A DNA stretch of 64,000 bases from a virus. The position numbers and the translations under genes are program-made. The notes under the pieces were generated by a model, which searched no databases, had not been told where the DNA came from, and saw nothing but the letters and a program-made list of their open reading frames with translations. Of this stretch, positions 12,678-30,956 are shown piece after piece. The stretch is from the IMG/VR virus record IMGVR_UViG_3300042389_001027, positions 1 through 64,000 of that record; one strand, written 5' to 3'. Position 1 is the first letter of the stretch; each line of letters starts with the position of its first letter.

Positions 12678-13979
12678 TCAGGCTTCTGGAGCACCGTCAA
12701 AGTTGACGGCAACGAAAGCCTCTGGGCGCTTGACTGCGAGAGCAAGACGCTGTTCAGCGAGAACAACAATTGCGTTGCGGACGAAGAAGTCTGCGTGCTG
12801 TTCGCTGATGCGGATGCTTGCCTGCTCACGGTCGTACAACTGAGCACCAGTGCCGAATGCGCCGACGAGAGCGGTGCCCTCGGTCATTGCTGGGGTGTCC
12901 ACGACGGGGATGCGCCACAAGCGTGGCTCTCCGCCAAGGGCAACCGAAACGGCGACGAGGTACTGACCGTTGTCGTCCTTTGACAATTCAATGTCTTCCC
13001 AGTCGTTCGGGTGAAGAACGACACCAGTTGGCTCGTAGTAAGCGAGGAACGAAAGGGTCGCGGCGCGACGGATTGCGTCAGCCTTGGTGTCCTTAAGTGC
13101 TCCTGCCGACCAGTCGTAACTCTGGATGCCAGTGGTTTCCATGATGCCGAGGAGGTTTTCACCAGTGCCGTCACCATTGAGGATTTGAGCATCTTCCTGA
13201 AGGCGCAAGCCGTAAAGAAGTTCGTTGTCAATGATGCTGCGCAATTGTGGTTCGTCAGCAAGCACGTTACGGTGAGCGGCTTCCCAGTGAGCCAAGGTGC
13301 GAACAGGAGCCTGCTCACCAACGAAGGTGAAAGACGACTGTGGCTTGGCTGCAAATGCAGAACCGCTACGCTCAGCGACGGCGGCTGCGTTGTTGGTGAA
13401 ACCAGTCATGCGGAAGTACTCAATGACAGCAGCAGTCGTGGTACGGCTTGGGAACAAGTCGCGAACACGCTTGGTGCGCATTGGAGGAACCACGATGGGG
13501 TCACGCTGGATGGAACCGAACGAACCAGGGGTGCCCGATGGCAGAGCGCTGTAGACGTCCTTGGTGCTCCAGAGACCAGTGACATCGCCACGGTTCAACT
13601 GGAATGGGCTTGGCATGTTCGCACCGTTCTTGCCACCGTTCAATGTCTTGAATTCTGGTGAATCAAGGAACATCTGACCGAGGCTCTTGGCGGATGGAAC
13701 TTCAGTCCACTGACCCTGAGCGGCAGCAGCCTGAGCCACTGAGCCACCCTGAGGCTGTGAACCCCAAGCGTCAACTTCGCGCATGCTCTCAAGACCCTCA
13801 ATGAGGCTCTTGATTTCGCGGATGTCACGCATGTTGTTGTCAAAAGCGGACTTTTGTTCTGAAGAGACGACAACGGTGCCGTCTTCAATCTTGAACGAGT
13901 CAGCAATGGTCTTGTTGTCTGCCATCTTGGCGCGAAGTGCACCTTGAAGTTCAGACAGGCGGTGTTGGTCAAAAGACAT
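12678..13979 (-). CDS. Major capsid protein, HK97 fold
   Basis: 433 residues. A charged, helical N-terminal scaffolding (delta-like) region of about 120 residues is followed by the HK97 capsid core. The core begins near SGTPGSFGSIQRDPIVVPPMRTKRVRDLF and includes the spine helix, RTLAHWEAAHRNVLAD, the E-loop and P-domain region, LNGDGTGENLLGI and IPVVDTPAMTEGTALVGAF, all typical of this family. The N-terminal region is presumably removed by the prohead protease encoded upstream. AGGAG lies before the ATG. Last gene of the minus-strand head operon and followed by a strong terminator. Confidence 0.95.
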   Translation of the reverse strand: MSFDQHRLSELQGALRAKMADNKTIADSFKIEDGTVVVSSEQKSAFDNNMRDIREIKSLIEGLESMREVDAWGSQPQGGSVAQAAAAQGQWTEVPSAKSLGQMFLDSPEFKTLNGGKNGANMPSPFQLNRGDVTGLWSTKDVYSALPSGTPGSFGSIQRDPIVVPPMRTKRVRDLFPSRTTTAAVIEYFRMTGFTNNAAAVAERSGSAFAAKPQSSFTFVGEQAPVRTLAHWEAAHRNVLADEPQLRSIIDNELLYGLRLQEDAQILNGDGTGENLLGIMETTGIQSYDWSAGALKDTKADAIRRAATLSFLAYYEPTGVVLHPNDWEDIELSKDDNGQYLVAVSVALGGEPRLWRIPVVDTPAMTEGTALVGAFGTGAQLYDREQASIRISEQHADFFVRNAIVVLAEQRLALAVKRPEAFVAVNFDGAPEA

Positions 13980-14124: not shown

Positions 14125-15345
14125 TTAAAACTCTTGATTGAGTGAGACCACATAATGTCTAGTAACGTTCTTTGCCTCGCCACGGCGGAAAGATACACCA
14201 ACCGATGGGTCGGTTAATTCCTCGTAAGTTTCGCCATCAATGGTAAAAGATTTTGCCCCGAGTCCTCTTTTCTTCCAAGGGTGACCATCAGGGAGTAGGT
14301 CGTTATCTGTTGTATATGAAGCCTTTGCAGAGCCAGACATCAAAAGTCTCAAGAAAGCATTGACACGACCCATAGCCCACTGACCGCGAGTCATGCCGGG
14401 TCGGTGACTAACACTAAAAGCACCAGCCCCACGGCGGTAGACAGCCTTGAGGGCTCTAAGGCTGGTTTTTGACCAGTCGTCTTTGTTTTTTTTCTTGACA
14501 TCAGCATTATGGTCGCGAACCTTAGAAATCAAAGCGTTCTCAACCGCAATCGTTACTGATATCCCAGATGCCGAAGACGTGGACGAAGCAGAGCCGACGC
14601 TATTCCTAGACGAACCGATAATTCTGTCTTTCTTTGGCGCGGGCGTCTTAGCGAGTGACTTTTCTTCACCATCCTCGTCTTTCTTCTTGGGGCGTCCGTC
14701 GTTTCTGAGTCCACGTACCTTGTTGTAGTCGGGGGAGTTTGTACATGGGAGGTAGACGATTTTGCCGTCTCTTGCCCTGTAACTTCGGATACCAATGCAC
14801 CCGAGTTGTCTTGCTCGCACGCGTGCCGATTCTGGGTCGGTAAATACGTCAGGGTCGGTAGAGCGTGAAACATAGTTGACAAAACCCTTGGCATCCATTG
14901 GCTCAATTGTTAAGTCAAGGCTCTTTGCGGAAACTAAACCACCACCCGGCAATGTGTCAATCCCCATAATCGGGCTTTCCGTCAGTTTCTCAAAATCTGA
15001 CGGCTTTTCCTCTGGTGTGCCATTTTTGTGGATGCTGTAAAACAACGTGCCATTTTTAGCAATTGTTCGTACCGAATATCCGCGACGCTTTGCTTCAGCA
15101 AGAGCCTCATCATAAGACGAATACAGTTTGCCACTCTTAGACGCTGCTGTAGCCGCCTTGACGTTGACTATTGGCGAAAGGGACTTCTCAACACGCCTAT
15201 GTTCCTGTCCGCGAATAGCAGCAGTCATTTCCTCATGGGTAGCGCATGGCATCCAACGCCCGTCGGCATCTTGGTGAGCGCCGTAACACCCGAGCATTCG
15301 TGCCACGCGCATCGCCTGCTTGCGTGTTGCGTAGTTCATTGTCAC
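14125..15345 (-). CDS. Putative minor head protein with two LGC...PC repeats
   Basis: 406 residues, no named family. Two copies of a short module, AR-x-LGC-x-G ... DG ... PC, occur at about residues 15-35 and 180-205. The C-terminal part (LRALKAVYRRGAGAFSVSHR, then QWAMGRVNAFLRLL and DNDLLPDGHP) is a conserved stretch I recognise from phage structural proteins of unknown function. The middle is Ser/Lys-rich and low in complexity. Lies between the large tagged proteins and the capsid gene, so a virion component is likely. Coupled to the upstream 106-aa gene by a 4-nt overlap. Confidence 0.7.
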   Translation of the reverse strand: MTMNYATRKQAMRVARMLGCYGAHQDADGRWMPCATHEEMTAAIRGQEHRRVEKSLSPIVNVKAATAASKSGKLYSSYDEALAEAKRRGYSVRTIAKNGTLFYSIHKNGTPEEKPSDFEKLTESPIMGIDTLPGGGLVSAKSLDLTIEPMDAKGFVNYVSRSTDPDVFTDPESARVRARQLGCIGIRSYRARDGKIVYLPCTNSPDYNKVRGLRNDGRPKKKDEDGEEKSLAKTPAPKKDRIIGSSRNSVGSASSTSSASGISVTIAVENALISKVRDHNADVKKKNKDDWSKTSLRALKAVYRRGAGAFSVSHRPGMTRGQWAMGRVNAFLRLLMSGSAKASYTTDNDLLPDGHPWKKRGLGAKSFTIDGETYEELTDPSVGVSFRRGEAKNVTRHYVVSLNQEF

Positions 15346-15662
15346 GCCTCTGGGTAGAGGATTTTTACTTTCCGTGGAACGGATGAGCCCTTACCGTCCC
15401 TTTCCTCAACGTCACCCATATAAAAACCGTTATTAGAAAAAGTAGTGAAAACTTTGTCTAGTTCTTTTTGGTTCTTTTTTTGGCTGAAATACCAAACAGT
15501 TGAATGAATCAATTCCTCGTCATCAGATTGCTCATCAAGCGCATTTGCTATAAGCAGAACTTTACGACGCACTTCGTCAGGGAGTTTCATGAACTCACCT
15601 TTGATGTGTTCAATGTTTTGTGGCGTTAAGCCAACTTTTTTAGAAATATTATTCTTCGTCAC
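15342..15662 (-). CDS. Hypothetical protein in the head operon
   Basis: 106 residues, unrecognised. Helical N terminus (GLTPQNIEHIKGEFMKLPDE) and a mixed C terminus with aromatic residues (FTTFSNNGFYMGDVEE). GTG start; it overlaps the end of the 945-aa gene by 14 nt and the next gene by 4 nt, so expression is tied to both. It could be a dedicated partner of the large protein, by analogy with the other small genes between the large ones. Confidence 0.65.
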   Translation of the reverse strand: MTKNNISKKVGLTPQNIEHIKGEFMKLPDEVRRKVLLIANALDEQSDDEELIHSTVWYFSQKKNQKELDKVFTTFSNNGFYMGDVEERDGKGSSVPRKVKILYPEA

Positions 15663-18486
15663 GGGGGTCCGCCTTAATCAGGTTCTTGTCAAGCCAGAAC
15701 GTACCGCCACCCATTGGCATGTTACTCACAAACCAGTTTTTGAGTTCGGTATCGCGTGCTCTTCGTTCTGCATTCGTACGCGCGGGGTTGCTTAACGCAT
15801 AAATGAAATCCATATGTCTTACGGATGCTGGGTCATCTCTATGTTTTTCAATCAAGTACTCTATGATATTTGCATCTTCCGCATTTTTAATTATAGAAGA
15901 GTTGCCATTTCGGAATGCGGTTAGTTGGGTAGCCATACGACCCACAGTGTCTGTGCCCATTGCGCGAGAAGGTTCAAACCCAATGCGACCCCAAACGTAA
16001 GGTCCATCATAGGCTGCTGTAACTTCAAATTTTTCAAACCCTGCAGCCTTGGCATACATAAATGCATGCTGGTTATAGATGGTTTGGATTCCGTTGTTCT
16101 TATGTGCTTCCGCATTAATTATCAGGCTGTTGTTGTAAACCTTATTGTCGTCTAGATAAATTGTCCTCCCTGTTGTACCAACTTGCGACCATGTTCCGTT
16201 CGCATTCTTGACTTCCACTACACCAGAAACCGAGATTGTTGAGCCACTGAGATTGGCGTTCATGACAGTTCTGTATGTTTTCCCATTTGAGCCCTGAATT
16301 TCAGCATGGTTATACATTGCTTTTGCCCACTCTTGCAATGCATTCTTCGCGTTTGCCCGTTCCGTAGGGCTGGCATTGCGGTCGTTGGCTTTAGCGAGAA
16401 GTTCTCGCCGTTTATCCAAAGTCATTTCTTTCCATGGAGCATTCCCTGGTCCGTAGACCCTGTCAAGGTGTTCGCCAAGAACCTGTTGTCTTTTCGCAAT
16501 CGCGTCCTTGACGCGTGCTTCTGCTTTTGCTGCTATTTCGGGGTTCAACGGTTCTGGTGCAGGCGCTGCGAGAGCAGCCTCAATTTCTGTCCTGCGTTCA
16601 GAAAACCTATCGCGTTGAGCGATTGCCTGAATAAGGTCACGCTGCTTTAGACGGTAGTCATCTCTGCGTGCTGGGTCTGCTGCATCATATGCTCGTCGTT
16701 TTTGATAAACATCTTGATTTAGTTCTGATAGGCGGCGCTGGTATCTCTGTTGCATGCCATCTCTGTCGCGGATTTGTAACATGTTGTTACCACCGCCATT
16801 GAACATGCCGTTAAAGTTCTCGTCCGCCGCGCGATTACCATTTCGTGCCGCATCCATTGCGCGCTGAACACGTACAGGAATCTCCTGCTCATTCTGTGCT
16901 TCAAAGAATTGACGCCACTGAGCCTCTGTCCTTCCACGGACATCGTCATTATCGGCAAGACGCATTGGCTGTGCTGGTAACGATGGTGGACGGTTACTTC
17001 CTGATGGGACGATAGGTTCTGGTGGATTGGGGATTTCTGGTGCTGGGCTTGGCTCTGGAACATTTGGTTGTTCCGCTTGAGGGTTTCGTAGTTCTCCAAG
17101 ACGACGTTTCATTCCCTCGGCACCATTGCGATAATTTTGCAACCGAGCATTTGCCTCTATTAACAAATTAGCATTTGTTTCGGATGGTTCATTCGCAAAT
17201 AGGCGCGCAGCCTCTTGAAGACCTGAACGCTCATTGACGATTGCCTGTTCGCGATTCCGTAAAACTTCTTGAAGTTCGTCAATGTTCTCTTGACGCCACA
17301 TAGCCATGTCATTGGGGATGCCTTCATTGAGTTGCCATTCATTAAACGCTTGACGTTGGTCAAAGAAACGTTGGTCAAATTTGTCGCCAAGATATTTACG
17401 CAACTGTTGCTGATTGAGACCTTCGGCAGGAATATCCAGTGTATTGAGCCGACGCTCAATCATTTCTCGTGCGGCAGCATCACTCGCAGGTGCGGGGTTG
17501 CGTGCTTCTTCAACCTGACGCCTAGCCTGCTCTACGGTGTTCTCTGCACGAGCAGGGGTTACTTCACGCTCACGCACTTCAGCAGAACGTGCAGCATTAT
17601 CGCTTTGACCAGCGGGTACTGGAGTCGGCTTACGTGCTGGTTTGCCTTCGTTTTGACGAGATGCAGTATCACGATTATTCGCTGGTTCAGGGCGACGGCG
17701 ACGACCAGCATTAGCAGGACGGCGAGGTGCAGCAGGACGGGGGCGAGGTTCAGGACGCGGAGCAGCAGGTGCTGCTTCACCAGTGCGCGGTGCTCCTGGT
17801 TCGTTAATTTCACGCTCCATGCGACGTTCTTCTGAAGGGCGAAGATTGCGACGTGGGCGCCTAGCAGCAGCAGGGCGAGGACGTGGTTCGGCTTGAACTT
17901 GACGGCGACCACGAGGGGCTGCGGGTGCTGCGGGTGCTGCTGGTGCTTGTGGGGCATCAGCGCGGCGAGCGCGCCCTTGCTGTGGTTTATCGGGGTTAAC
18001 AACTTCAGCAATACGACCAGCGGCACGCTCAATGCGCCCAGCAGGACGTGGGGCTTCGGTTCCGACGCGGTTGCGGCGACCCCCTTGACGACCAGTTACG
18101 TCGGCAGCATCACCGATACGACCAGCAGCGCGCTCAATAGCGCCTGCTTGACCAGCCAAACGACCAGCCATACGCTCATTTCGTTGGCGCAACTTGCGTT
18201 CACGGCGACGGTCGCCTACGTTCTCAAGGCGTTCTCCAAGGTCAGAAATTTCGTTTGCAAGACGGCGAGCGACACCCCAACCGCAGTTGCGACCAAAACG
18301 GTCGGTAATCTGTCCGCCATATCGCGTACCTACTGGGCAGCGGTAGCCACCACGACGATTGGTGCCAGGGATAGCAAGAGAAGGGTCAAAAACTGCTCTA
18401 GCGCGCTTCACTTCATACAACATGGATGAGCGATTGCTCTCCGTAGTGAATCGTAGCGCTTTATATGAGACTAAGTTCTTGTCCAT
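15649..18486 (-). CDS. Tagged giant head-module protein with C-terminal GNAT-like domain
   Basis: 945 residues. Starts at the ATG at 18486 (AGGA 6 nt upstream) rather than a longer in-frame start that would overlap the preceding gene. A 19-residue Cys motif (C50-P-x-G ... T-D-x5-C68) lies inside a block, residues 49-97, that is identical to one in the neighbouring 907-aa protein. An Arg/Pro/Ala-rich low-complexity stretch (about 100-350) and long coiled-coil-prone regions follow. Residues about 751-840 look like a GNAT acetyltransferase core (GIQTIYNQHAFMYAKAAGF, then DGPYVWGRIGFE). Probably carried in the virion; effector role inferred. Confidence 0.78.
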   Translation of the reverse strand: MDKNLVSYKALRFTTESNRSSMLYEVKRARAVFDPSLAIPGTNRRGGYRCPVGTRYGGQITDRFGRNCGWGVARRLANEISDLGERLENVGDRRRERKLRQRNERMAGRLAGQAGAIERAAGRIGDAADVTGRQGGRRNRVGTEAPRPAGRIERAAGRIAEVVNPDKPQQGRARRADAPQAPAAPAAPAAPRGRRQVQAEPRPRPAAARRPRRNLRPSEERRMEREINEPGAPRTGEAAPAAPRPEPRPRPAAPRRPANAGRRRRPEPANNRDTASRQNEGKPARKPTPVPAGQSDNAARSAEVREREVTPARAENTVEQARRQVEEARNPAPASDAAAREMIERRLNTLDIPAEGLNQQQLRKYLGDKFDQRFFDQRQAFNEWQLNEGIPNDMAMWRQENIDELQEVLRNREQAIVNERSGLQEAARLFANEPSETNANLLIEANARLQNYRNGAEGMKRRLGELRNPQAEQPNVPEPSPAPEIPNPPEPIVPSGSNRPPSLPAQPMRLADNDDVRGRTEAQWRQFFEAQNEQEIPVRVQRAMDAARNGNRAADENFNGMFNGGGNNMLQIRDRDGMQQRYQRRLSELNQDVYQKRRAYDAADPARRDDYRLKQRDLIQAIAQRDRFSERRTEIEAALAAPAPEPLNPEIAAKAEARVKDAIAKRQQVLGEHLDRVYGPGNAPWKEMTLDKRRELLAKANDRNASPTERANAKNALQEWAKAMYNHAEIQGSNGKTYRTVMNANLSGSTISVSGVVEVKNANGTWSQVGTTGRTIYLDDNKVYNNSLIINAEAHKNNGIQTIYNQHAFMYAKAAGFEKFEVTAAYDGPYVWGRIGFEPSRAMGTDTVGRMATQLTAFRNGNSSIIKNAEDANIIEYLIEKHRDDPASVRHMDFIYALSNPARTNAERRARDTELKNWFVSNMPMGGGTFWLDKNLIKADPRDEE

Positions 18487-18493
18487 TTGATTC

Positions 18494-18826
18494 CTACTTT
18501 GCTGCAGCCCATTCGCGTGCTGTTTGTAGTGACTTGTTCGCTCCATCAGAGCCAATTTCAAAAAAATCTGATGGGTTAGGGGTGTAGCCGTTTGATTCCC
18601 AATATTTTCCTAGAGACATGTACGCAATTTCTTCGTAGTCATCTTTTGAGGACGCTTTTGACAGTCTGTCAACTATACCATTCAGGTATTTCTTTGTATC
18701 CTCATCTGTTTTCGGATTGACCATTATGTTGACTTTACTATTCTGAATAGAGACGACCGAGCGTGGGTCTTTAGCCTTCTGTGTATCGTCTGAAAAGTAA
18801 CTAACGTAAATTCCATCTTCGTGCAT
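18494..18826 (-). CDS. Hypothetical small protein between two tagged giants
   Basis: 110 residues, unrecognised. Predicted soluble, with a beta-rich start (GIYVSYFSDD; SVVSIQNSKVNIMV) and a helical C terminus. GGGAG stands before the ATG. It is placed 2 nt downstream of the kinase-domain giant and 7 nt upstream of the GNAT-domain giant, a position that suits a chaperone or immunity-like partner, but no direct evidence exists. Confidence 0.68.
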   Translation of the reverse strand: MHEDGIYVSYFSDDTQKAKDPRSVVSIQNSKVNIMVNPKTDEDTKKYLNGIVDRLSKASSKDDYEEIAYMSLGKYWESNGYTPNPSDFFEIGSDGANKSLQTAREWAAAK

Positions 18827-18828
18827 TT

Positions 18829-21552
18829 TTACTCCCGTGCTGCCTGTGCAAGATTGCGCAATGTCAATCGCATATTATTCGCGTTACGTGTCACTTTATC
18901 TGCAGGTACCCCAACATCCCGCCAATGACGTTTTTGTTCTGCGACGATATTGTCTATTTGTGCATCAGAAAGGTTACGGAAATTCTGGCGTATTTGCGGA
19001 GAACTAACACTTGCCCATATTCTTCGCGCATTTTCAACAGTGCGCTCTGGAATGATTCCGTTTCCTGCAGGGAGAATTCCGTGGTCAATTGGTAGTTTTT
19101 GGTCTCCAGCCCACATGTAGTTATTTGAGTGCCTGTCACCGTTACCCAGAACTGCGTCAATGAAATCTACATGCTTCGCTGCTTCACGGTCTGGGCTGTT
19201 AGGTCTATCCCTACCTTCTCTGACCTCCATGCCGTGGACGTCGCCAAAATGCTCAACGAGGATGCTGTGGTTTTGTGTTGCGCCTCTACCACGTGCGCGA
19301 CCTTCTGCGTTCTGTCTCTGTTCGCGCTGTCCAATGATGCGGACTCGCGCCATTGGACGTCCTGCTAACTGACCAATGATTCCCGCATACTGTTCGCCCA
19401 CAGCCTCATCCTGAACAAATGAAGGCGACTTCATGATATAGCGTTTGCCAGTAACTTGGTCAATGACAACGTATGTTTTGTTCTGTACGTTAGCCATACC
19501 TCTGTTGTTGATTCCGTTGCTTGGGTCGCCCTTCAATTGGAATCGCTTACCATTTAGCGGCTCACCTGGCATTGCTGCGTTATCAAATATTGCTTGTTTG
19601 ACAAGCATGTCTGGAACATCGTCTAGCGAGCCACCATTTTTTACATGAAGTTTGGCATCTGCGGCGTTATTTATGCCATTAGCCCCAACGGCGACGTGGT
19701 CAGGAACTAGTACGCCATCAACAACCTTATGACCCATTTTTTGATTGAACCGCTCAGGGCTGTTGCCGTGAATTCCAGCATTGGGTGAGCGAACGTCCGA
19801 AGCATTAAGCCCTTGTCCAGCCTGCGGTGCGCCACGACCTCGTCTTGGGCGACGAGGAGCAGGAGCGGGTGGAGCAGGAGCGGGTGCGGCTTGTTCGCCC
19901 AAAATTCTCTCCAATTGAGCAATTCGCGCATCACGATTGCCACCAGGCACATTCTGGTCACGGTCTTGGCGTAGTTGATTCAGTTCCTCACGAAGTCCTG
20001 CTTCTTCAGATGGCGTGAACTGTCGTGCAGGAGCCTTTGGTTTACGAGGGGCATTAGGTTGCACTGCTTCTGGTTGGTCAGCAGGACGAGGACGACGATT
20101 TGCTGGACGACGACCATTCTGTCCTGCGGCACCTGTGCGCCGTTGACGACCAGCATTGGGTCGTGGGCGTGGTGCAGGACGAGGTGCTGCGGGGGCTGCT
20201 TCAGGAGCATCGGGATTACGGTCGCGCCATGCTTGCTCTACAGCGGGTCCGTGAAAACGTTCCCACTCTTCGCGACGCAAGAACCCTGCACGTCCGCCAC
20301 GCTCACGGATGCGACGCACTTCTGCCTGATGTTCGTTGTATTTACGAAGTTTGTAGTCGTCTAAAGATTCGCGTGCTGCAGGTGCTCCAGCAGGTACGGG
20401 AACGTTGCTGACATTGTCGCGTGGTGCGGGGGCTGGTCGTTGTGCTGCAGGACGGGCAGGGCGAGGGTTTGCTGGACGACGTGGTGCGGCAGGGCGAGGA
20501 CGAGCCGCAGGACGCGTTCCGCCTCCGACGGGCATGACTCTTCCATTTTCATCAAGCATTCCGCCTAATTGCGGACCTGTGCGTTCCGCACCAGGGCGAA
20601 CAAGTTCGCGTTCCATACGACGCGCTTCGGAATCGCGGAGACCATTACCTCGCCTATTCCGTGGTCGTGCCGCTGGGGCTGCCTGTCCACGACCCCTATC
20701 TGGGTCGGCAACTTCTGCTAGTCGGCGAGCAGCACGCTCAACCCGACCGACAGGTTTTACTGTGTCTGCTTCACCAACACGTTGGCGTCCACCTCGTTGG
20801 CGTCCACCCATTCCAGTGAAGTCAAGAGCATCGCCGACGGCACGGGCTCCACGCTCAATTGCTCCGCCTTCGGCAAGACGACGAGCCATGCGCTCATTGC
20901 GCCGAGCAACACGCCGTTCGCGTCGGCGGTCACCAACATTTTCTAGCCGTTCTCCAAGGTCGGAGATTTCATTAGCAAGCCGCCGAGCAACACCCCAGCC
21001 ACAGTTGCGTCCGAAGCGGTCAGTGATTTGTCCGCCGTAACGTGTGCCAACTGGGCAACGGAAGCCGCCGCGACGTTCTGTTCCTGGTACGGAAAGCGAT
21101 GCGTCCCAAACGGCACGAGTGCGCTTTACCTCGTAACTAAACGAAGACTTGTTTTGGTCGGCAATGAACGCAACTGCTTTGTATTCAACTGCGTTTCTCC
21201 ACATTTCCGTAGGGAACTCCAGCAATTGGATATCCATAAGAGATACGACGGGAACAAGGCTTGCCTCATTCCCGTGGGCATCCTTTTTTTCTGGCTGTTC
21301 CGTCTTGGATGCACGATTCTTGATTTCCTCAACCAAAGAATCGCTTACAGATACTTCAACCGACATTGAATTATCAAGTGTCACGGTGAGTTGTTCGCGT
21401 GTAATTTTCTTTCCAGCGAACTCTTCTGTCATCCATTTTGCCCACGATTTGGCACCATTTACAGCAGGGAAAAATGTTGCACCTTCAGCGGAAAGTTCCA
21501 CCAGAGCGTACGGTTTATTTTCTCTGTCTTTGACCAAAAATCGTGATGCCAT
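18829..21552 (-). CDS. Tagged giant head-module protein with C-terminal PI3K/HipA-like kinase domain
   Basis: 907 residues. The N-terminal region (1-130) is a folded mixed domain. The Cys motif follows at C166-C184, in a block (165-213) identical to the 945-aa protein. About 400 residues of Arg/Pro/Ala-rich linker come next. The C-terminal region from about residue 690 has a kinase layout: ATP-site lysine K708 (GKRYIMKSP), catalytic loop D806-R-H808-x2-N811 (GNGDRHSNNY), and metal-binding D823 in PIDHG, the counterpart of DFG. This matches the PI3K/HipA-type atypical kinases. Start coupled (TAATG) to the upstream gene. A packaged, DNA-co-injected kinase is inferred. Confidence 0.8.
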   Translation of the reverse strand: MASRFLVKDRENKPYALVELSAEGATFFPAVNGAKSWAKWMTEEFAGKKITREQLTVTLDNSMSVEVSVSDSLVEEIKNRASKTEQPEKKDAHGNEASLVPVVSLMDIQLLEFPTEMWRNAVEYKAVAFIADQNKSSFSYEVKRTRAVWDASLSVPGTERRGGFRCPVGTRYGGQITDRFGRNCGWGVARRLANEISDLGERLENVGDRRRERRVARRNERMARRLAEGGAIERGARAVGDALDFTGMGGRQRGGRQRVGEADTVKPVGRVERAARRLAEVADPDRGRGQAAPAARPRNRRGNGLRDSEARRMERELVRPGAERTGPQLGGMLDENGRVMPVGGGTRPAARPRPAAPRRPANPRPARPAAQRPAPAPRDNVSNVPVPAGAPAARESLDDYKLRKYNEHQAEVRRIRERGGRAGFLRREEWERFHGPAVEQAWRDRNPDAPEAAPAAPRPAPRPRPNAGRQRRTGAAGQNGRRPANRRPRPADQPEAVQPNAPRKPKAPARQFTPSEEAGLREELNQLRQDRDQNVPGGNRDARIAQLERILGEQAAPAPAPPAPAPRRPRRGRGAPQAGQGLNASDVRSPNAGIHGNSPERFNQKMGHKVVDGVLVPDHVAVGANGINNAADAKLHVKNGGSLDDVPDMLVKQAIFDNAAMPGEPLNGKRFQLKGDPSNGINNRGMANVQNKTYVVIDQVTGKRYIMKSPSFVQDEAVGEQYAGIIGQLAGRPMARVRIIGQREQRQNAEGRARGRGATQNHSILVEHFGDVHGMEVREGRDRPNSPDREAAKHVDFIDAVLGNGDRHSNNYMWAGDQKLPIDHGILPAGNGIIPERTVENARRIWASVSSPQIRQNFRNLSDAQIDNIVAEQKRHWRDVGVPADKVTRNANNMRLTLRNLAQAARE

Positions 21553-23768
21553 TACGCAATCCCTACTAATTTATTGAATGTCGTTTTTTGTTTTTGTATA
21601 GCGTCTTTCCGTGAAGAGAAAATCTTTTTGATTATCTCTAGGTGACGCTTCTCGCCATCTGACAGATTCCCGTCAATAGATAGGCGGCTTACGTACTCGT
21701 CCCAGTTGAATGCTTCTAGTTTTTTAAACAGGTCGTCAACAAGGCTTGCCAACATTTTACGCTCAGATTCAGATGCGGACGAGAAGGTATCCACATAAAG
21801 GCGGGCGCCTCTTTCGTCCATGTATTCAGGGAGGTCAATCTTGAATCGTTTAGCAATATCAGCAGCGGATAGTCCTGCTGCGTTAGACAGTTCATTACTG
21901 CTTGGAATGACTGTAACGCGGGAGCCGTCACGTGCTGGGATGAGGGTTGCAGGGGAACGGTCACGCCTGTCGGTCATGAAGTCAGCAATGGCGGCACGCA
22001 TTATGTCGCCCTTGTTGACCTTTGACATGTCAATAGATGAATCAAAACGTGTTTCGCCCTGATTGATGTCAGACATAATCAGGTCACGCTTAGAGGCATT
22101 GCCACCAATCTTTGTTGTCGGCATCTTCAGACCCAAATGTGCCGCAATATCTGAATAAACTTTTTCCGAAACCGAACCATTAGGTACCGTTTCTGGAATC
22201 TGGATGACAGTCTTGCCGCTTCCTGCTTGATGCTTGATGACACCAGTACCAAGAGAAGACGACTCATAAGACTTACTGCGTTTCAGTGCATCAGAAATAA
22301 ACTCCGATGGGATATCAAACGGGTCACCGCCATTATCAAGAAGTTTAATTGAATCCGCAAGAGTCTTGGGGTTGTCATTCTTTGACGTGGCATCTTCCCT
22401 AACCGTTGAGGTTTCCGACATGGCGGTTACTGGCTTCTTAGCCTTACCTTTGCCGTTTGACATAAATGTCTCATAGACCCAGCGCCGAACCTCAACCTTG
22501 CCGCCCTTTCCGTTATCCACGGAAATTACGTCATTGGGTTTTTCCACATTTGGGAATTTTTCTGTGTATTTAAATGCACCATTGGAAGCGTTTGCAAAAT
22601 CACGAATGTTGTTTCCGACATCAAATTGGTCGCTTTCGCCTGCAACGCGGTTCAACTGTCTGCCGAATTTGCGGCGCTCTCCGACAGTCAGGTCTCGGGC
22701 ACGCTCAATTGTCAGGGTAGAGCCGTTAGACATCACATACGTGACTTGACGGACAGCAGCACCTGAAAGTAGTGCTAAGTCATCACCGACAATGTCTTTA
22801 GGTAGTTGGATTGGGCGAATCATTACTCCGCCATCCATGTCGGAGTTTCCGCTGAATTTGCGCAGAACCGATGATGGAACAATCGGCTTAAGCACTACAC
22901 CGTCACGACGGATTAATCGTCCTTCTGTTGTTGGCGCTCCAGTCACTGTGCGAATAGACGCTTCAACTGCTTTGATGCGCGCATTCGGGTTATCTGCTCC
23001 AGTTCGTGGAATTTGCGCCATACGGAGGATTGATGCCGTGTTGTTGGTTGTTCCTGCCGTAACAACTTGTGAAAGGCTTTCCGCGCCCTGAACTCGTGGA
23101 GTGCTCGGCTTGGTTGCCAAGCGTCGTGCCGTACCTATAGCCACACCAAGAGGTGTAGGGATGTCAAACAATTGTGCGCCACATGTTGAATAACGCTCAT
23201 CAGTGAATCGCCCACCGAATTGGAAACCAGCAGGGCAACGGAATCCGCGAGTTGGCTTTGGTGTTACGCGACGAATGCGCCCTAAACCAAGGTTGCCGCC
23301 AGGAATTAGTGCTCCGTATACCCGTGAGCGGATTGGGCTGCGTACTGCTGATAGGTCGCCAGGGAGGGCGATTGTTCCTGCCGCCTGAATGTTTTGCCCG
23401 ACTGCTCCGCTGCTCCCGATAAGACCAACCTTTACGTGGACATTACTGCCTACGCGAGACTTTGTTGGGGTTGAGAACAGTGCGGCTTTGAAGTTGAGTA
23501 GGTTGCGACTCTCGGAAGACAGAGGGGACATGAGGGCAGCCGAAGAGCCTTTGATGAATGGCTCAAAGTGACGCTTTGGTTCTCCAATTTCACCAGTTTC
23601 GGTTACTTTTGTTCGTAGAACTTTTGATGAATGTTGCTTTTTTGTTACGTTACGAACAATGTAGCCATCGCCATCGGATATATTGCGAGTGAATGACGCG
23701 TCTTTACGGAGGACAGGACGTTGATGTCGCAAGAAACTCTGTATTGAGGATTTGCTGTCAGCGTTCAT
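21552..23768 (-). CDS. Tagged giant head-module protein with C-terminal pseudokinase-like domain
   Basis: 738 residues. The shared Cys motif is at C178-C196 (CPAGFQFGG ... TD ... C). Residues from about 510 onward line up in order with the kinase domain of the next gene: GSGKTVIQIPE against GKRYIMKSP, EKVYSDIAAHLGLKMP against EQYAGIIGQLAGRPM, and DRRDRSPAT against GDRHSNN. The catalytic His is Ser605, the metal Asn is Thr608, and the DHG motif is replaced by IPSS, so it should be inactive as a kinase. Fold assignment is by my own alignment. Virion location inferred from context. Confidence 0.72.
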   Translation of the reverse strand: MNADSKSSIQSFLRHQRPVLRKDASFTRNISDGDGYIVRNVTKKQHSSKVLRTKVTETGEIGEPKRHFEPFIKGSSAALMSPLSSESRNLLNFKAALFSTPTKSRVGSNVHVKVGLIGSSGAVGQNIQAAGTIALPGDLSAVRSPIRSRVYGALIPGGNLGLGRIRRVTPKPTRGFRCPAGFQFGGRFTDERYSTCGAQLFDIPTPLGVAIGTARRLATKPSTPRVQGAESLSQVVTAGTTNNTASILRMAQIPRTGADNPNARIKAVEASIRTVTGAPTTEGRLIRRDGVVLKPIVPSSVLRKFSGNSDMDGGVMIRPIQLPKDIVGDDLALLSGAAVRQVTYVMSNGSTLTIERARDLTVGERRKFGRQLNRVAGESDQFDVGNNIRDFANASNGAFKYTEKFPNVEKPNDVISVDNGKGGKVEVRRWVYETFMSNGKGKAKKPVTAMSETSTVREDATSKNDNPKTLADSIKLLDNGGDPFDIPSEFISDALKRSKSYESSSLGTGVIKHQAGSGKTVIQIPETVPNGSVSEKVYSDIAAHLGLKMPTTKIGGNASKRDLIMSDINQGETRFDSSIDMSKVNKGDIMRAAIADFMTDRRDRSPATLIPARDGSRVTVIPSSNELSNAAGLSAADIAKRFKIDLPEYMDERGARLYVDTFSSASESERKMLASLVDDLFKKLEAFNWDEYVSRLSIDGNLSDGEKRHLEIIKKIFSSRKDAIQKQKTTFNKLVGIA

Positions 23769-24225
23769 GTAGTGCTGTCCTTAGTCGTTGTTGTTCAGTT
23801 TTTACCTGACCATACTTTTCAGTATTTGGGTTAGGTGATACAGAAGATTGGGCTGCTTCCTTGCCGTACAAATCTTCTGGCTTTATCCCTACACTGGCAA
23901 GGATATCAGGGCTTATGGGCTCGGAGCGGGTAGAAAACATGGCTATCCATTTTTCCATTGGCATCTTGTCGGAGCGTGTCTTCATTTCCCAGAATTGTTT
24001 GTGAAATTCTGTTGTGTCAATCAGTCGCCATTCGTCAAGTTTTGACTGAATTCCACCATCATTTAGGTGAAAGTATAAAGGGTAAACTTTAATCGGTGTA
24101 TCTACGCCATTCTCGGAAAAATAGCCGTCATAGTTCTGAGACTTTGGTTTTAAGCAGGTGTAGATGATTGCTTTACCGACTACCGCAACTGGTATGGGAA
24201 ACTCTTTTTTGTCAATCATTGTCAT
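23758..24225 (-). CDS. Hypothetical protein between tagged giants
   Basis: 155 residues, unrecognised. Aromatic, beta-rich N-terminal half (VGKAIIYTCLKPKSQNYDGY) and a charged, Pro/Ser-containing C-terminal tail. Start overlaps the stop of the 796-aa gene (ATGA), and its end overlaps the start of the 738-aa gene by 11 nt. The strict coupling suggests stoichiometric co-production with its large neighbours, for instance as a chaperone or adaptor. Confidence 0.66.
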   Translation of the reverse strand: MTMIDKKEFPIPVAVVGKAIIYTCLKPKSQNYDGYFSENGVDTPIKVYPLYFHLNDGGIQSKLDEWRLIDTTEFHKQFWEMKTRSDKMPMEKWIAMFSTRSEPISPDILASVGIKPEDLYGKEAAQSSVSPNPNTEKYGQVKTEQQRLRTALHER

Positions 24226-26612
24226 GTCACCGATTCATTCGGGTCGTACGGGCGAGACGCCCACTCAATTTCCCGACGAGTATCCTCTAGCAACTTTGTG
24301 CGCAGGCGTCCTCCCCAAATATCGGCGATACGGTCGCCCGCCTTACCGCCGTTGTATTTCGTGGGGTCGCCTAAATCAAGACCATCGTAGGAGCCGAAAA
24401 TAACTTTAACATGCGGTGCCTTTTCCTGAACCAATGAGGTAATGCGCTCCATCTCCATCGCCATAATGACCCCGTCAAGTTCCTTGTTCCCAATTGCCGA
24501 AGCCTGATTTCTTCCCTTATTACCTTCAGCGTTTTGTGTTTTCCAGCCTGAAATTTTTGCACGCGCAACTTCTATTTCACCCATTGTGAAACCTGCTGCA
24601 AGTAATTGCTCCGTAGAAAGGTGCTGGTCTTCAATCTTTTGAACTAGTTCTGTGCCGTCTACGCCGTCAGGGTTGAACTGGTCTTTATATGTTGGGAACA
24701 GTCTCGTTGCATCAAATTTCACTGCTTTGATGTCTTTGGCAGTGAATCCTCCCAAGATTTGTGATTCTGTATATTGACCATTTTCGTTCAGTCCATCTTT
24801 GCCCAAACCTGATGATTTATTCCAATTAACAAAATCTTGTGTTACGTGGGTTCGCAGTAGGCGATTAATATTGTCGTTTACGTCACTGTCGCCCAAGTGA
24901 CCTACGATTGCTTCAACAAGTTCCTCGTCCGAGGAACCAACTGCACCCGTACCTCTTGCTTGGTTGAGGATGCTGTCCTTGTGGTGTACTGCCGTTCTGT
25001 CTGCTACTTCTGCGTGGAGTACAAATTCCATGTCTCCATAGCCGATTCCGTCACCAGCAAAAGCACCCTCAAAACCGCCAATGCCTCCGCCTCCCTTCCC
25101 AGGGATGGTTAGGTAGTGGTCTGTACTGAACAGTTGTTCGCCTTCTTTGGCGTTCTTTTCATCTGTGATTCGCTTTAATTCATCATCCCAGAATGTGAAA
25201 CCACTAAATCCGTACACAGGGCGGACACCAGAACCCCATTTCGCCCCAACGCTGGCTTCATACTGTCCACGGTTACCAATTAACCCCGTTAAAGCATCGC
25301 CAACTTGGTCATCCTTTTTGACTTCCGCTGGGAGGTAGCCGTCCGTTAGGTATGCATCTAAATGCATTCCCTTCGCCCATACCGACGCTTCAGGTTTGCG
25401 TGCTTTCGCAATTGTCAATGCAGTCTGTTCAATCGCTGCAATTACTTCATCATCTGTATGAGTGAGAATAAACTCATGTGTTTTAGGGTCTATTACTCTG
25501 TCAAACGGGAAACCGTTTTCATCTGTTTGTGCGCCTGATTCAATCATGCGACGAAGGTTGGAAACCTTGCTCGCCATGATTCTTCTACGCTCGTCCTGTC
25601 GTTGTTTTATTGTCAGCAGGTCTTTACTGCCGCCATAGATGCCAGAATCATTAATTTCTTTAACATCTTCATCTGTCGTTTTGCCCCACTTTGGAGCCTT
25701 GGCAAGAATCTTGTCATTAAACGCTTTAATTGCATCTGATGTTTCATGCCCTGCTTTTGGCAAGTCGCGCAAATCTGAAGCATTTGTTGCTGTATCCACC
25801 GCTCCGACAGCACGGTCAACACTAGTAGGCTCATTGACTTTTATGCCTCGGATTCTATCCTTGAATGAACCCATGGTATCTCTTAGGGAATTCTGCAATG
25901 TTGCAGAAAGTTCTCCAGCGCGAACATTCATTCTCTTCATTCGCTCCAAGAATGCGTCTTGATACTCGTTAACCTGCTCGCGTGTTTTGTTCCACTTATC
26001 TTTAGCGTTTTCTAGAGTCATCTTGAGTGCAGCAGCACCACCGCTTACGTATATCCCCGTAAGCATTTGGATGCCTTCCATCTGGTCAGCGTCACCAATC
26101 CCCGTTGCTACATCATTTATGACGGTGCCCAAATCACCGAAGTTGCCGAAGAAGGTAGCCCAGTAGGCTGAATTTAAAACGATTTTCCCAATAAGATTTT
26201 TTTGGTCTTGAGATAACCCCTGTTTTTCAAGAGAGGCATCTATGTCAATACCGAGCGCCTTAAACTCTGCAATCGTTTCAGGTGAGTTTCTATTTGGCAA
26301 CAGACTAGAAGCAGCATTAGCAGTAGCCTGAGCAACGGTTTCGGCACTTGGAACCATGCAGTTAGACATTTGCATGTCAGTGAACTGGTTAGCGTTCGGT
26401 GTTCCTGGTGGACACCTCATCTTCCCATTCTCGTCAACGATGATTCCTGCACGGCGAGCAGCATGATGCCCGACAGATGGCAGTTTTCTATCTTCACGAA
26501 GAGACGGTCCAAGAAAACCTTTGACCATCACATCTTCACGGATAGCCGAAATAGAAGAGGTGAGACTCTTTACACGCTCGTTTGCTATGTCAGGGAGTGA
26601 CCTCATAGTCAC
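24222..26612 (-). CDS. Tagged giant head-module protein with RPVYG/YGD C-terminal domain
   Basis: About 796 residues. The GTG at 26612 was chosen because GGGAGG lies 5 nt upstream; the ATG at 26606 is an alternative. It carries the shared Cys motif early (C67-P-P-G ... T-D-x5-C85). A mildly hydrophobic stretch (near 140-200) and helical regions follow. Residues about 440-570 contain GQYEASVG, RPVYGF and YGDMEFVLHAEVADRTAV, a combination I associate with uncharacterised DUF3626-like or toxin-like domains; this is weak recall, not proof. Lies in the minus-strand head operon before the other tagged proteins. Confidence 0.72.
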   Translation of the reverse strand: MTMRSLPDIANERVKSLTSSISAIREDVMVKGFLGPSLREDRKLPSVGHHAARRAGIIVDENGKMRCPPGTPNANQFTDMQMSNCMVPSAETVAQATANAASSLLPNRNSPETIAEFKALGIDIDASLEKQGLSQDQKNLIGKIVLNSAYWATFFGNFGDLGTVINDVATGIGDADQMEGIQMLTGIYVSGGAAALKMTLENAKDKWNKTREQVNEYQDAFLERMKRMNVRAGELSATLQNSLRDTMGSFKDRIRGIKVNEPTSVDRAVGAVDTATNASDLRDLPKAGHETSDAIKAFNDKILAKAPKWGKTTDEDVKEINDSGIYGGSKDLLTIKQRQDERRRIMASKVSNLRRMIESGAQTDENGFPFDRVIDPKTHEFILTHTDDEVIAAIEQTALTIAKARKPEASVWAKGMHLDAYLTDGYLPAEVKKDDQVGDALTGLIGNRGQYEASVGAKWGSGVRPVYGFSGFTFWDDELKRITDEKNAKEGEQLFSTDHYLTIPGKGGGGIGGFEGAFAGDGIGYGDMEFVLHAEVADRTAVHHKDSILNQARGTGAVGSSDEELVEAIVGHLGDSDVNDNINRLLRTHVTQDFVNWNKSSGLGKDGLNENGQYTESQILGGFTAKDIKAVKFDATRLFPTYKDQFNPDGVDGTELVQKIEDQHLSTEQLLAAGFTMGEIEVARAKISGWKTQNAEGNKGRNQASAIGNKELDGVIMAMEMERITSLVQEKAPHVKVIFGSYDGLDLGDPTKYNGGKAGDRIADIWGGRLRTKLLEDTRREIEWASRPYDPNESVT

Positions 26613-26629
26613 GGGCACCTCCCGGTGAA

Positions 26630-26855: not shown

Positions 26856-28181
26856 TCAGATACCTTCCTCAATGGTGAGCATTTCAAATTCAAGCAAGTC
26901 AGCGAGAAGTTTTGTAGCCTCGGCATCCTCTGCTGACTTCTCTTCTTCTGCCATTTCGGAGCCCCAGCCTTCAGGAATCATGTCTTCCTTGCCAAGTTCT
27001 TTGGCGCGCTTCATAATGTGAGCCTTGGCTGCAGCCTTGTCTCCCGCACGACCGAATGCTTGGATTGCGTTCTGAAGGTCTTCTTCGTCCTTAATTGGGA
27101 ATGAACCGTCAGGAAGGGCTTCGCCTGCTTCTGCCATGGTCTTACGAGTATCTTCGTCATACATACGCTTCAATGCGAGGTCTGCAACTTCGGCATCAAT
27201 ATCTGCTGCTTCGTCTGCGTCGTATTCGTCCCAACCGAGGACTTCGCCTTCAAGGCTGACGAAAACGTCGTATGACTTGCCATCTTCACCTTCAATTTCC
27301 ACGGCGTAAGCGTCGTAGCCTTCAAACATGTCGGCATCAACACTGACGACTTCACCTTCAATGCTCTTGACGGCAATGTCGGCTGCTTCGTTGAACGAGA
27401 TAACTTTCTCGCCAGCAATTTCTGCGACTTCACCCAATACTTTCTCGTTGAGGAGGTGCCAGCCCATGACTTCACCAGAGGTTCCGTCAAAGAAGATTTC
27501 TACTGGCTTGCCATCTTTGCGTTGTACGTCAACGATGAAGATGTCGGTTTCGTCAGCATATGCAGAATCAAGAACTTTGCCTGAGAACATGTCCTCAGCG
27601 ATACCTTCCACTTCAAGAAGTGTTGGCATATCTGATTCTGGAGCACATCCGCCGGGGCACTGAGCACAAACCTGTGAGGTGCCTGCGAGCATTTTGCGTT
27701 CAAATGCGCACACGAACGAATCGTCGTCCCACTCTTCAGACTTCATGCCCATGCTGTCCATGCGCTTCTTGCGAGCCTTCTTGCGCTTGGCTGTTGGGTC
27801 GTCGTCCATTTCATCTTCAACTTCAGATGCCATGGATTCCATCGGGGACATTCCGCCCTTTGTGTCGGCGGTAACCCACTCTTCGGACTTTGCTTCTACG
27901 GTTTCTGCAGCAGCGCCGCACTTTCCGCAAACTTTCTGACCAGGCTTGTAACCGCACTCGGCAATGTCAAGCCCCTTGGCACACTTGATGGTGCCATCGG
28001 CGAGTAGTTGAACAATTGGCTTATCTGCCATTTCGTCTTTCTCCTTGTATTGCATGGTTGAGGTTAAGCAGCCACTTGGTTTTGTACATCCAGAACACGG
28101 CGCGATGCGTTTTTCGCCCGAAACCATGCAACTGTATTTTGTTGAAATCTTAGGTAATCCGTTTTGTGAAGTATAACTCAT
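26856..28181 (-). CDS. Acidic head-module protein with tandem PepSY-like domains
   Basis: 441 residues from the ATG at 28181 (GGAG 7 nt upstream); an internal ATG at 28031 with AAGGAG would give 391. The N terminus has Cys clusters (PCSGCTKPSGC; AECGYKPGQKVCGKCG; CAQCPGGC) that could bind zinc. Two PepSY-like units follow (ending IFFDGTSGEVMGW and VFVSLEGEVLGW). The C terminus has LPDGSFPIKDEEDLQNAI and HIMKRAKELG, a stretch I recognise from phage head proteins. Strongly acidic overall. Position between prohead protease and giants suits a scaffold or assembly chaperone. Confidence 0.7.
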   Translation of the reverse strand: MSYTSQNGLPKISTKYSCMVSGEKRIAPCSGCTKPSGCLTSTMQYKEKDEMADKPIVQLLADGTIKCAKGLDIAECGYKPGQKVCGKCGAAAETVEAKSEEWVTADTKGGMSPMESMASEVEDEMDDDPTAKRKKARKKRMDSMGMKSEEWDDDSFVCAFERKMLAGTSQVCAQCPGGCAPESDMPTLLEVEGIAEDMFSGKVLDSAYADETDIFIVDVQRKDGKPVEIFFDGTSGEVMGWHLLNEKVLGEVAEIAGEKVISFNEAADIAVKSIEGEVVSVDADMFEGYDAYAVEIEGEDGKSYDVFVSLEGEVLGWDEYDADEAADIDAEVADLALKRMYDEDTRKTMAEAGEALPDGSFPIKDEEDLQNAIQAFGRAGDKAAAKAHIMKRAKELGKEDMIPEGWGSEMAEEEKSAEDAEATKLLADLLEFEMLTIEEGI

Positions 28182-30638: not shown

Positions 30639-30956
30639 TCAACTACTTTCAGTAAACTTATTTATCTTCTGCATGAGGCTGGCTGAAGATAAAGCGCCAA
30701 CAATTGAGCCAACCTGTTTTCCATCTCTAAACACAAGAAGTGTAGGGATGCTCATAATGTTGTTGGACGACGCCAATTTCGGATAATCGTCAATATTTAC
30801 TTTACAAAACTTGACGTTAGTCATCTTTTCTGACAAATCCACAAGCACTGGTTCCATCATCTTGCACGGACCGCACCACGATGCCCAGAAGTCAACAACG
30901 ACATCTCCATCGGAGATGGAATCAGAAAAGTCTTTATCTGTGAGTTTGGTAATCAT
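30639..30956 (-). CDS. Thioredoxin
   Basis: 105 residues with the classical active site WASWCGPCK, the cis-Pro loop (IPTLLVF) and the usual length. Dithiol reductant for partner proteins. The ATG at 30956 overlaps the portal stop (TGATG) and GAGG lies upstream; a longer in-frame start inside the portal gene is unlikely. Its location inside the structural operon, next to Cys-rich head proteins, suggests disulfide management of these proteins as well as possible reduction of the phage class II ribonucleotide reductase. Confidence 0.95.
   Translation of the reverse strand: MITKLTDKDFSDSISDGDVVVDFWASWCGPCKMMEPVLVDLSEKMTNVKFCKVNIDDYPKLASSNNIMSIPTLLVFRDGKQVGSIVGALSSASLMQKINKFTESS

What the first reader, a model, noticed from the sequence alone, without database searches (positions are those of the whole stretch)
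15649..26612. Four large head-operon proteins share a 19-residue Cys tag but carry different C-terminal domains
Seen: the proteins at 15649-18486, 18829-21552, 21552-23768 and 24222-26612 each contain C-P-x-G-x7-T-D-x5-C with invariant C, P, G, T, D, C and exact 19-residue spacing. Behind it lie long Arg/Pro/Ala-rich linkers in two of them and unrelated-looking C-terminal domains (GNAT-like, kinase, pseudokinase, RPVYG/YGD). They sit between prohead protease and capsid genes, interleaved with small coupled genes. Inference: a modular tag-and-payload family of virion-internal effectors, with the tag as a targeting, protease or disulfide-anchoring element, analogous to MuF-linked toxins but on separate genes.
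Basis: partly seen in the sequence, partly recalled or inferred. Interest (0 to 1): 0.92.

Follow-up and report, generated by a model that had tools for sequence, protein, structure and literature searches.

The report
Cysteine-tagged swappable phage-head effector proteins

Summary
Four minus-strand head-operon proteins carry C-P-x-G-x7-T-D-x5-C. These are the only matches in the 128.6-kb record, and shuffled proteins gave none. The motif is widespread: 231 IMG/VR loci, 137 distinct 19-mers. It sits in one place, in the order portal-MuF > protease > PepSY/12-Cys protein > tag A > tag B > tag C (x1-3) > DUF3721 > capsid. It was not found in 50,697 phage records, and only in a few virus-like contigs among 84,980 prokaryote species genomes.

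Payload swapping is shown for slots A and C: proteins with alignable tag modules have unrelated C-termini in 181/383 (A) and 43/135 (C) pairs. For slot B (P3) it is 1/1269, so P3 is a fixed core component, not a payload carrier. Payloads include PI3/4K/HipA-like kinases (catalytic residues invariant), a DUF3626/SopF-like probable ADP-ribosyltransferase (P4), and zincin-, ParB-, RNase_T- and VIP2-type domains. P3 ends in a pseudokinase; P1 "GNAT" stays unproven. L059 shows a replacement, with half a kinase and its partner gene left behind.

Best reading: a capsid-cargo address tag on injected effectors, working like T4's capsid-targeting sequence with a polyvalent-protein payload repertoire. 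Packaging, injection and the role of the cysteines are inferred.

The parts
26358..26414 (-). Tag A (CPPGTPNANQFTDMQMSNC) in P4
   Evidence: class A conserved in 89 distinct segments
23181..23237 (-). Tag B (CPAGFQFGGRFTDERYSTC) in P3
   Evidence: C, P, G, GG, F, T, C, G invariant in 68 diverse P3 homologues
21001..21057 (-). Tag C (CPVGTRYGGQITDRFGRNC) in P2
18283..18339 (-). Tag C (identical peptide) in P1; module shared with P2 at 72.8% DNA identity over 327 nt
24222..26618 (-). P4, slot-A carrier: N-terminal tag module plus C-terminal DUF3626/SopF-like (probable ADP-ribosyltransferase) payload
24225..25883 (-). P4 payload region used for alignment A4 (RPVYG...YGDMEFVL...RT...DS)
   Evidence: A4 profile hits Pfam-verified DUF3626 protein L181 at 5.8e-8; top Foldseek hits SopF 7dn8/7dn9, E 0.026, from a weak model
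23758..24225 (-). 155-aa partner gene overlapping the P4 stop; found only beside this payload type
21552..23768 (-). P3, slot-B protein: tag B, confident mid domain with no PDB match, C-terminal pseudokinase; never swapped
18829..21552 (-). P2, slot-C carrier: tag C, ERAAGR-type helical repeats and R/P/A-rich linker, C-terminal PI3/4K/HipA-like kinase
18835..19749 (-). P2 kinase payload (K, DRHxxN, D residues intact)
   Evidence: K107, D205, H207, N210, D222 invariant in 34 sequences
18494..18826 (-). 110-aa small gene following P2 (candidate partner)
15649..18561 (-). P1, slot-C carrier: tag C, R/P/A-rich linker, C-terminal domain of unproven (GNAT-like) type
26856..28181 (-). PepSY-domain protein with 12 invariant cysteines in three 4-Cys clusters, the gene just upstream of slot A
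28196..30538 (-). S78 prohead protease with DUF6321 and a C-terminal RYWRP/AWLHHE domain that in relatives is a separate gene or fused to tag B
30956..33157 (-). Portal protein fused to MuF domain
30639..30977 (-). Thioredoxin-like gene within the head operon (also in 6 related loci)
   Evidence: sequence WCGPC
14125..15345 (-). DUF3721/DUF5824 protein closing the tagged-gene block
12678..13979 (-). HK97-type major capsid protein

Best explanation
The 19-residue Cys-pair motif is the core of an N-terminal loading (address) module for capsid-interior cargo. Slot-A (P4) and slot-C (P1, P2) proteins are carriers: the module docks them in the prohead, probably on fixed partners made by the same operon (tag-B protein P3, the 12-Cys PepSY protein, portal-MuF). 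Their exchangeable C-terminal enzymes then travel in the head and are ejected with the DNA to modify host proteins early in infection: here a PI3/4K/HipA-like kinase, a DUF3626/SopF-like probable ADP-ribosyltransferase, and an unidentified P1 domain. P3 is a fixed structural or adaptor member with a dead kinase fold. Shown: motif, slot-specific conservation, invariant gene context, payload replacement, kinase catalytic residues, P3 pseudokinase. Inferred: virion location, injection, protein targets, and the role of the cysteines (metal or disulfide docking).
For: Motif in 231 IMG/VR loci, 137 distinct 19-mers, same spacing. 208/231 loci show head-operon genes on the same strand within the few kb held, and none shows a contradictory context. 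Payload swapping in slots A (181/383) and C (43/135) but not B (1/1269). Within one tight clade of 8 phages slot A holds kinase, ParB-like and DUF3626 payloads. L017 versus L059: about 77-78% identical DNA on both sides; similarity stops 2 nt after the tag, and the displaced kinase half and its partner gene remain downstream. Small downstream genes differ with the payload. Payload families are protein- or nucleic-acid-modifying enzymes. T4 internal proteins are a published precedent: diverse defence proteins sharing only a capsid-targeting sequence (PMC3012670). ARTs next to head genes are widespread in myoviruses (PMC9503650), and this phage has a tail sheath.
Against: No proteomics, no cultured tagged phage and no host are known. 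The tag lies 50-200 residues from the N-terminus and has no detectable relation to known targeting sequences. Related cultured phages (Gilgamesh, Gray, Cantare) have large or effector-like genes at this place without the tag, so the tag is not universally required. Some 'unrelated' pairs may be remote homologues that blastp misses. The SopF link rests on a weak model and a sub-threshold profile for the window protein itself.
Confidence: 0.68

Rival explanations
1. The tag is purely structural: a small Cys-stabilised element by which large minor head proteins bind one another or the capsid (internal scaffold, core or head-completion proteins). The enzyme-like C-termini are diverse decoration or assembly domains that stay in the head or act during assembly and are not injected.
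For: P3 is universally conserved and catalytically dead; the operon is rich in conserved Cys (12 in the PepSY protein); the tag is the most conserved stretch of P3.
Against: Kinase catalytic residues are invariant in 34 divergent payloads and payloads are replaced by unrelated enzymes, which a purely structural role does not predict.
Confidence: 0.2
2. Anti-competitor or polymorphic-toxin system: payloads are toxins against bacteria or rival phages, and the small downstream genes are cognate immunity proteins, as for MuF toxins.
For: Payload-specific small overlapping genes; displaced kinase remnant with its partner gene; ART/VIP2, RNase_T and kinase payloads.
Against: MuF toxins carry MuF in the toxin polypeptide and belong to temperate phages (PMC5576092); here MuF is on the portal, and only 5 of 84,980 species genomes had pattern hits, 4 of them in virus-like contigs binned in MAGs. 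Partner genes could equally be chaperones.
Confidence: 0.2
3. The tag is a recognition or cleavage element for the S78 prohead protease, releasing payloads in the mature head, rather than an address.
For: Genes sit directly downstream of the protease; tag-flanking segments are conserved in class B.
Against: A fixed two-Cys 19-residue element is unlike known prohead-protease sites (own knowledge); in giant ORFs two tags lie about 360 residues apart with a conserved segment between them.
Confidence: 0.12

Closest known systems
T4 internal proteins and Alt with capsid-targeting sequence (CTS)
   Same: A short conserved N-terminal element shared by otherwise diverse proteins that act on host defences, encoded by separate genes (PMC3012670).
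   Different: The CTS is not a Cys-pair motif (own knowledge); here three slot-specific tag classes, giant fusions, kinase/ART/nuclease payloads, and a fixed tag-B pseudokinase partner. No sequence relationship was tested or is claimed.
Polyvalent proteins of phages (Iyer et al. 2017, PMC5512222)
   Same: Overlapping domain repertoire (ART, kinase, zincin, ParB-like, nuclease), head-gene neighbourhood, predicted co-injection; L010- and L013-type proteins combine several such domains.
   Different: A common Cys tag is not described ('cysteine' does not occur in that text); in the window each payload is a single domain on its own tagged gene; the kinase here is of PI3/4K-HipA type, in other lineages than theirs.
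MuF polymorphic toxins (Jamet et al. 2017, PMC5576092)
   Same: Conserved head-module N-terminus, exchangeable C-terminus, small gene behind.
   Different: No MuF domain in the tagged proteins; not associated with prophages.
Orphan/displaced modules of CDI/Rhs polymorphic toxins (own knowledge)
   Same: L059: replaced payload with the old C-terminal half and its partner gene left downstream.
   Different: Phage-head rather than secretion-system context.
SopF / DUF3626
   Same: P4 payload: DUF3626-like RPxYG...YG...RT..DS pattern; top structural hits SopF.
   Different: Sub-threshold in Pfam for the window protein; activity untested.

Membership tests
Polyvalent proteins | Several domains of disparate activity in one polypeptide | tested here: inconclusive
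   Met in relatives: L013 RNase_T + ADPrib_exo_Tox + A4-type domain; L010 GNAT-like + kinase + two tags. In the window each protein has one recognisable payload.
Polyvalent proteins | Encoded among virion/head genes | tested here: met
Polyvalent proteins | Injected with the DNA | not testable with these tools
   needs virion proteomics / infection assay
MuF polymorphic toxins | MuF domain N-terminal to the toxin in the same protein | tested here: not met
   MuF only on portal 30956-33157; none on P1-P4
MuF polymorphic toxins | Temperate phages/prophages | tested here: not met
   5 pattern hits in 84,980 species genomes, 4 in virus-like contigs of MAGs with the same operon, no clear prophage
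MuF polymorphic toxins | Cognate immunity gene downstream | tested here: inconclusive
   payload-type-specific small genes; protection untested
T4-type CTS internal proteins | Short conserved element plus diverse cargo proteins | tested here: met
T4-type CTS internal proteins | Element directs encapsidation and is cleaved by the prohead protease | not testable with these tools
   inference only
PI3/4K-HipA-like kinases (P2 payload) | Catalytic Lys, DxHxxN and metal-binding Asp | tested here: met
   invariant in 34 sequences; 24/34 match PF00454 (best 8.6e-8), 10 HipA_2; window protein itself below gathering
Active kinase (P3) | Same catalytic residues | tested here: not met
   homologous by profile (E 3.7e-21) but His/Asn/Asp lost
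DUF3626 / SopF-like ADP-ribosyltransferase (P4) | Significant match to PF12294 or the SopF fold | tested here: inconclusive
   window protein no Pfam hit, 1/20 relatives E 0.002; L181 in the same slot passes gathering (40.7 vs 27 bits) and matches the A4 profile 5.8e-8; Foldseek top hits SopF E 0.026, prob 0.82, from a model with pLDDT 55
GNAT acetyltransferase (P1) | Match to GNAT profile or fold | tested here: inconclusive
   no Pfam/PHROG match; PDB profile search only E 1.7 to an N-acetyltransferase chain

The most novel reading that the evidence does not exclude
A previously undescribed capsid-cargo address system: three slot-specific versions of one Cys-pair tag dock swappable effectors onto a fixed set of Cys-rich head proteins (12-Cys PepSY hub, pseudokinase P3) through metal or disulfide chemistry, in a whole lineage of uncultured phages, with payload-partner cassettes exchanged immediately behind the tag.
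Probability: 0.4. Interest if true: 0.85.

Novelty: new variant of a known kind. Interest (0 to 1): 0.74.

Why it matters
If right, a 19-residue signature lets one read virion-packaged effectors straight from metagenomic sequence: everything behind the tag in slots A and C is a candidate host-takeover enzyme, many without any known domain. It would be a natural, widespread, modular system for loading proteins into phage heads, outside T4, and it makes 'which proteins do uncultured phages inject' directly testable. Specialists know T4's CTS, MuF toxins and polyvalent proteins; a shared tag with slot-specific versions, swap boundaries at the tag and displaced remnants would be new to them.

Tried and rejected
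First own-genome pattern had the wrong spacing (0 hits), corrected. tblastn of tag segments and of P3, P1, P2, P4 C-termini against 50,697 phages: no meaningful matches. Looked for the tag in the head modules of cultured relatives: absent. The idea that all four are payload carriers was rejected for P3. MuF-toxin membership rejected. GNAT assignment of P1 could not be confirmed. P3 mid-domain Foldseek: no PDB match. PDB profile search with A4 gave only IcmE/DotG matches without a passing stretch, disregarded. Single-linkage clustering of whole C-termini merged everything through the giant proteins and was replaced by terminal-320-residue clustering.

Full report
WHAT IS THERE. The window is the first 64 kb of a 128,618-b virus record with a contractile-tail module (sheath, baseplate). 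The head operon runs on the minus strand: portal fused to MuF (30956-33157), a thioredoxin-like gene, S78 protease with DUF6321 (28196-30538), a PepSY-domain protein (26856-28181), then P4, a 155-aa gene, P3, P2, a 110-aa gene, P1, a small gene, a DUF3721/DUF5824 protein and the HK97-type capsid protein. P1-P4 carry the 19-residue motif exactly as reported. It occurs nowhere else in the record, and in 3000 shuffles of the window's proteins it never arose.

HOW WIDESPREAD. Together with P3 relatives they gave 231 loci with 337 tag occurrences and 137 distinct 19-mers. C, P, G and C are invariant partly because the patterns and the regex require them, but the unconstrained positions also show a clear consensus, CPxGxxx[GA][GN][QR]F[TS][DN]x5C, preceded by Arg. 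In GTDB species genomes one pattern gave five hits. Four are in virus-like contigs of MAGs with the same operon or a P3 homologue; the fifth shows no tag ORF or head genes. In 50,697 phage records tblastn found no relative of the tag segments or of P3; sensitivity for such short queries is limited.

CONTEXT. In the loci long enough to show it, gene order is the same: terL on the other strand, then portal > protease > PepSY > tag A > (a ~225-aa RYWRP-domain gene in some) > tag B/P3 > tag C (one to three) > DUF3721 > capsid. 208 of 231 loci show one of these genes on the tag's strand; most of the other 23 are short, and 13 of them carry a P3 homologue as the tagged ORF. The tag class is slot-specific. 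In one branch tags B and C are fused in single ORFs of about 1.4-3.4 kaa.

PAYLOADS ARE SWAPPED BEHIND TAGS A AND C, NOT B. Among 3'-complete proteins with alignable tag modules, the C-terminal part shows no blastp similarity in 181 of 383 slot-A pairs and 43 of 135 slot-C pairs, but only 1 of 1269 slot-B pairs. Different domain families confirm this: kinase, DUF3626, zincin-like (HExxH seen in sequence), ParB-like (own reading of sequence), ADPrib_exo_Tox, RNase_T, DUF7178. On a tree of the adjacent PepSY protein, one strongly supported clade of eight phages holds kinase, ParB-like and DUF3626 payloads in slot A. The clearest snapshot is L017 versus L059: about 77-78% identical DNA on both sides. 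DNA similarity stops 2 nt after the tag. L059's tagged protein keeps the kinase N-lobe and then reads into a new ParB-like segment. The kinase C-half remains as an orphan ORF (38% identity, catalytic DRH changed to ERD), and the kinase's partner gene (55% identity) follows. Small genes after the tagged gene differ with payload type.

WHAT THE WINDOW'S C-TERMINI ARE. P2: PI3/4K/HipA-like kinase; K107, D205, H207, N210 and D222 are invariant across 34 diverse payloads, 24/34 match PF00454 and 10 HipA_2, and PDB profile hits are mTOR/PI3K/CtkA. P3: C-terminus homologous to those kinases (hhalign E 3.7e-21) but without the catalytic His, Asn and Asp, hence a pseudokinase. Its mid domain is predicted with pLDDT above 90 and matches nothing in the PDB. 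P4: RPVYG...YGDMEFVL...RT...DS. The window protein has no Pfam match, but L181 in the same slot is a Pfam-verified DUF3626 and matches the P4-family profile (5.8e-8), and the two best structural hits of a weak model are SopF. SopF contains DUF3626 (PMC6682159) and ADP-ribosylates the V-ATPase (PMC7716379). A profile seeded on this domain is present in 27 of 44 slot-A proteins. P1: no library supports 'GNAT'.

OTHER ANATOMY. P1 and P2 share a module of about 110 residues around the tag (72.8% DNA identity over 327 nt), so the carrier module has been duplicated in front of different payloads. Slot-C proteins carry 1-4 'ERAAGRxADA' repeats at fixed offsets (about +47 and +85) behind the tag in several genomes. 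The PepSY protein has 12 cysteines invariant in up to 70 homologues, in three four-Cys clusters, which suggests metal sites. The operon thus concentrates conserved cysteines, and a thioredoxin-like gene lies in it in the window's subgroup.

MECHANISM. [quoted passage not shown]). By anatomy the Cys-pair tag is the best candidate for the address element, P3 and the PepSY protein for the fixed receptor side, and the C-termini of slots A and C for injected enzymes. Packaging, injection, and metal versus disulfide chemistry are inference. Cultured relatives by portal (Streptomyces phage Gilgamesh, Gordonia phage Gray, Brevibacterium phage Cantare) place a 4,624-aa protein or a VIP2-like ART and an RNA ligase in the same interval, without the tag. 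So the locus is an effector site more widely, and the tag is this lineage's solution.

LIMITS. The pattern scans were capped, so prevalence is a lower bound, and their fixed spacing biases the spacing result. blastp non-similarity is not proof of non-homology. The host is unknown; portal and protease relatives hint at Actinomycetota phages only weakly.

Noticed in passing
window 26856-28181: PepSY-domain protein with 12 invariant cysteines in three 4-Cys clusters (C18/29/32/38, C67/76/85/88, C158/172/175/179) plus an AHIMKRAKELGxxDMIPEGW-type motif also found in capsid proteases and other proteins of cultured phages.
   Followed up: partly
window 28196-30538, C-terminal ~aa 465-560: RYWRP...RRC...ICAWLHHE.TG.WPNEG domain: part of the protease here, a separate ~225-aa gene or the N-terminus of tag-B giant proteins in relatives.
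   Followed up: partly
L010, L012, L028, L036, L052, L081, L114: Giant ORFs up to 3362 residues joining tag B, tag C and several payload-type domains.
   Followed up: partly
L142 (protease ORF 2980 aa), L143, L149, L154, L178, L187, L226: S78 protease-matching ORFs enlarged to 1.2-3.0 kaa in some relatives; what the extra sequence is was not examined.
   Followed up: no
L059:7756-8517: Tagless, decaying kinase C-half left behind a newly inserted payload, followed by its partner gene.
   Followed up: yes
L238:5979-19853 (Streptomyces phage Gilgamesh gp48): 4,624-aa protein of unknown function between portal-MuF and capsid, no Pfam match, no tag.
   Followed up: partly
window 30639-30977: Thioredoxin-like gene (WCGPC) inserted between portal and protease in this subgroup.
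   Followed up: no
window 14125-15345: DUF3721 segment occurs as two similar Cys-containing stretches (GCYGAHQ..GRWMPC and GCIGIRS...VYLPC) in one protein.
   Followed up: no
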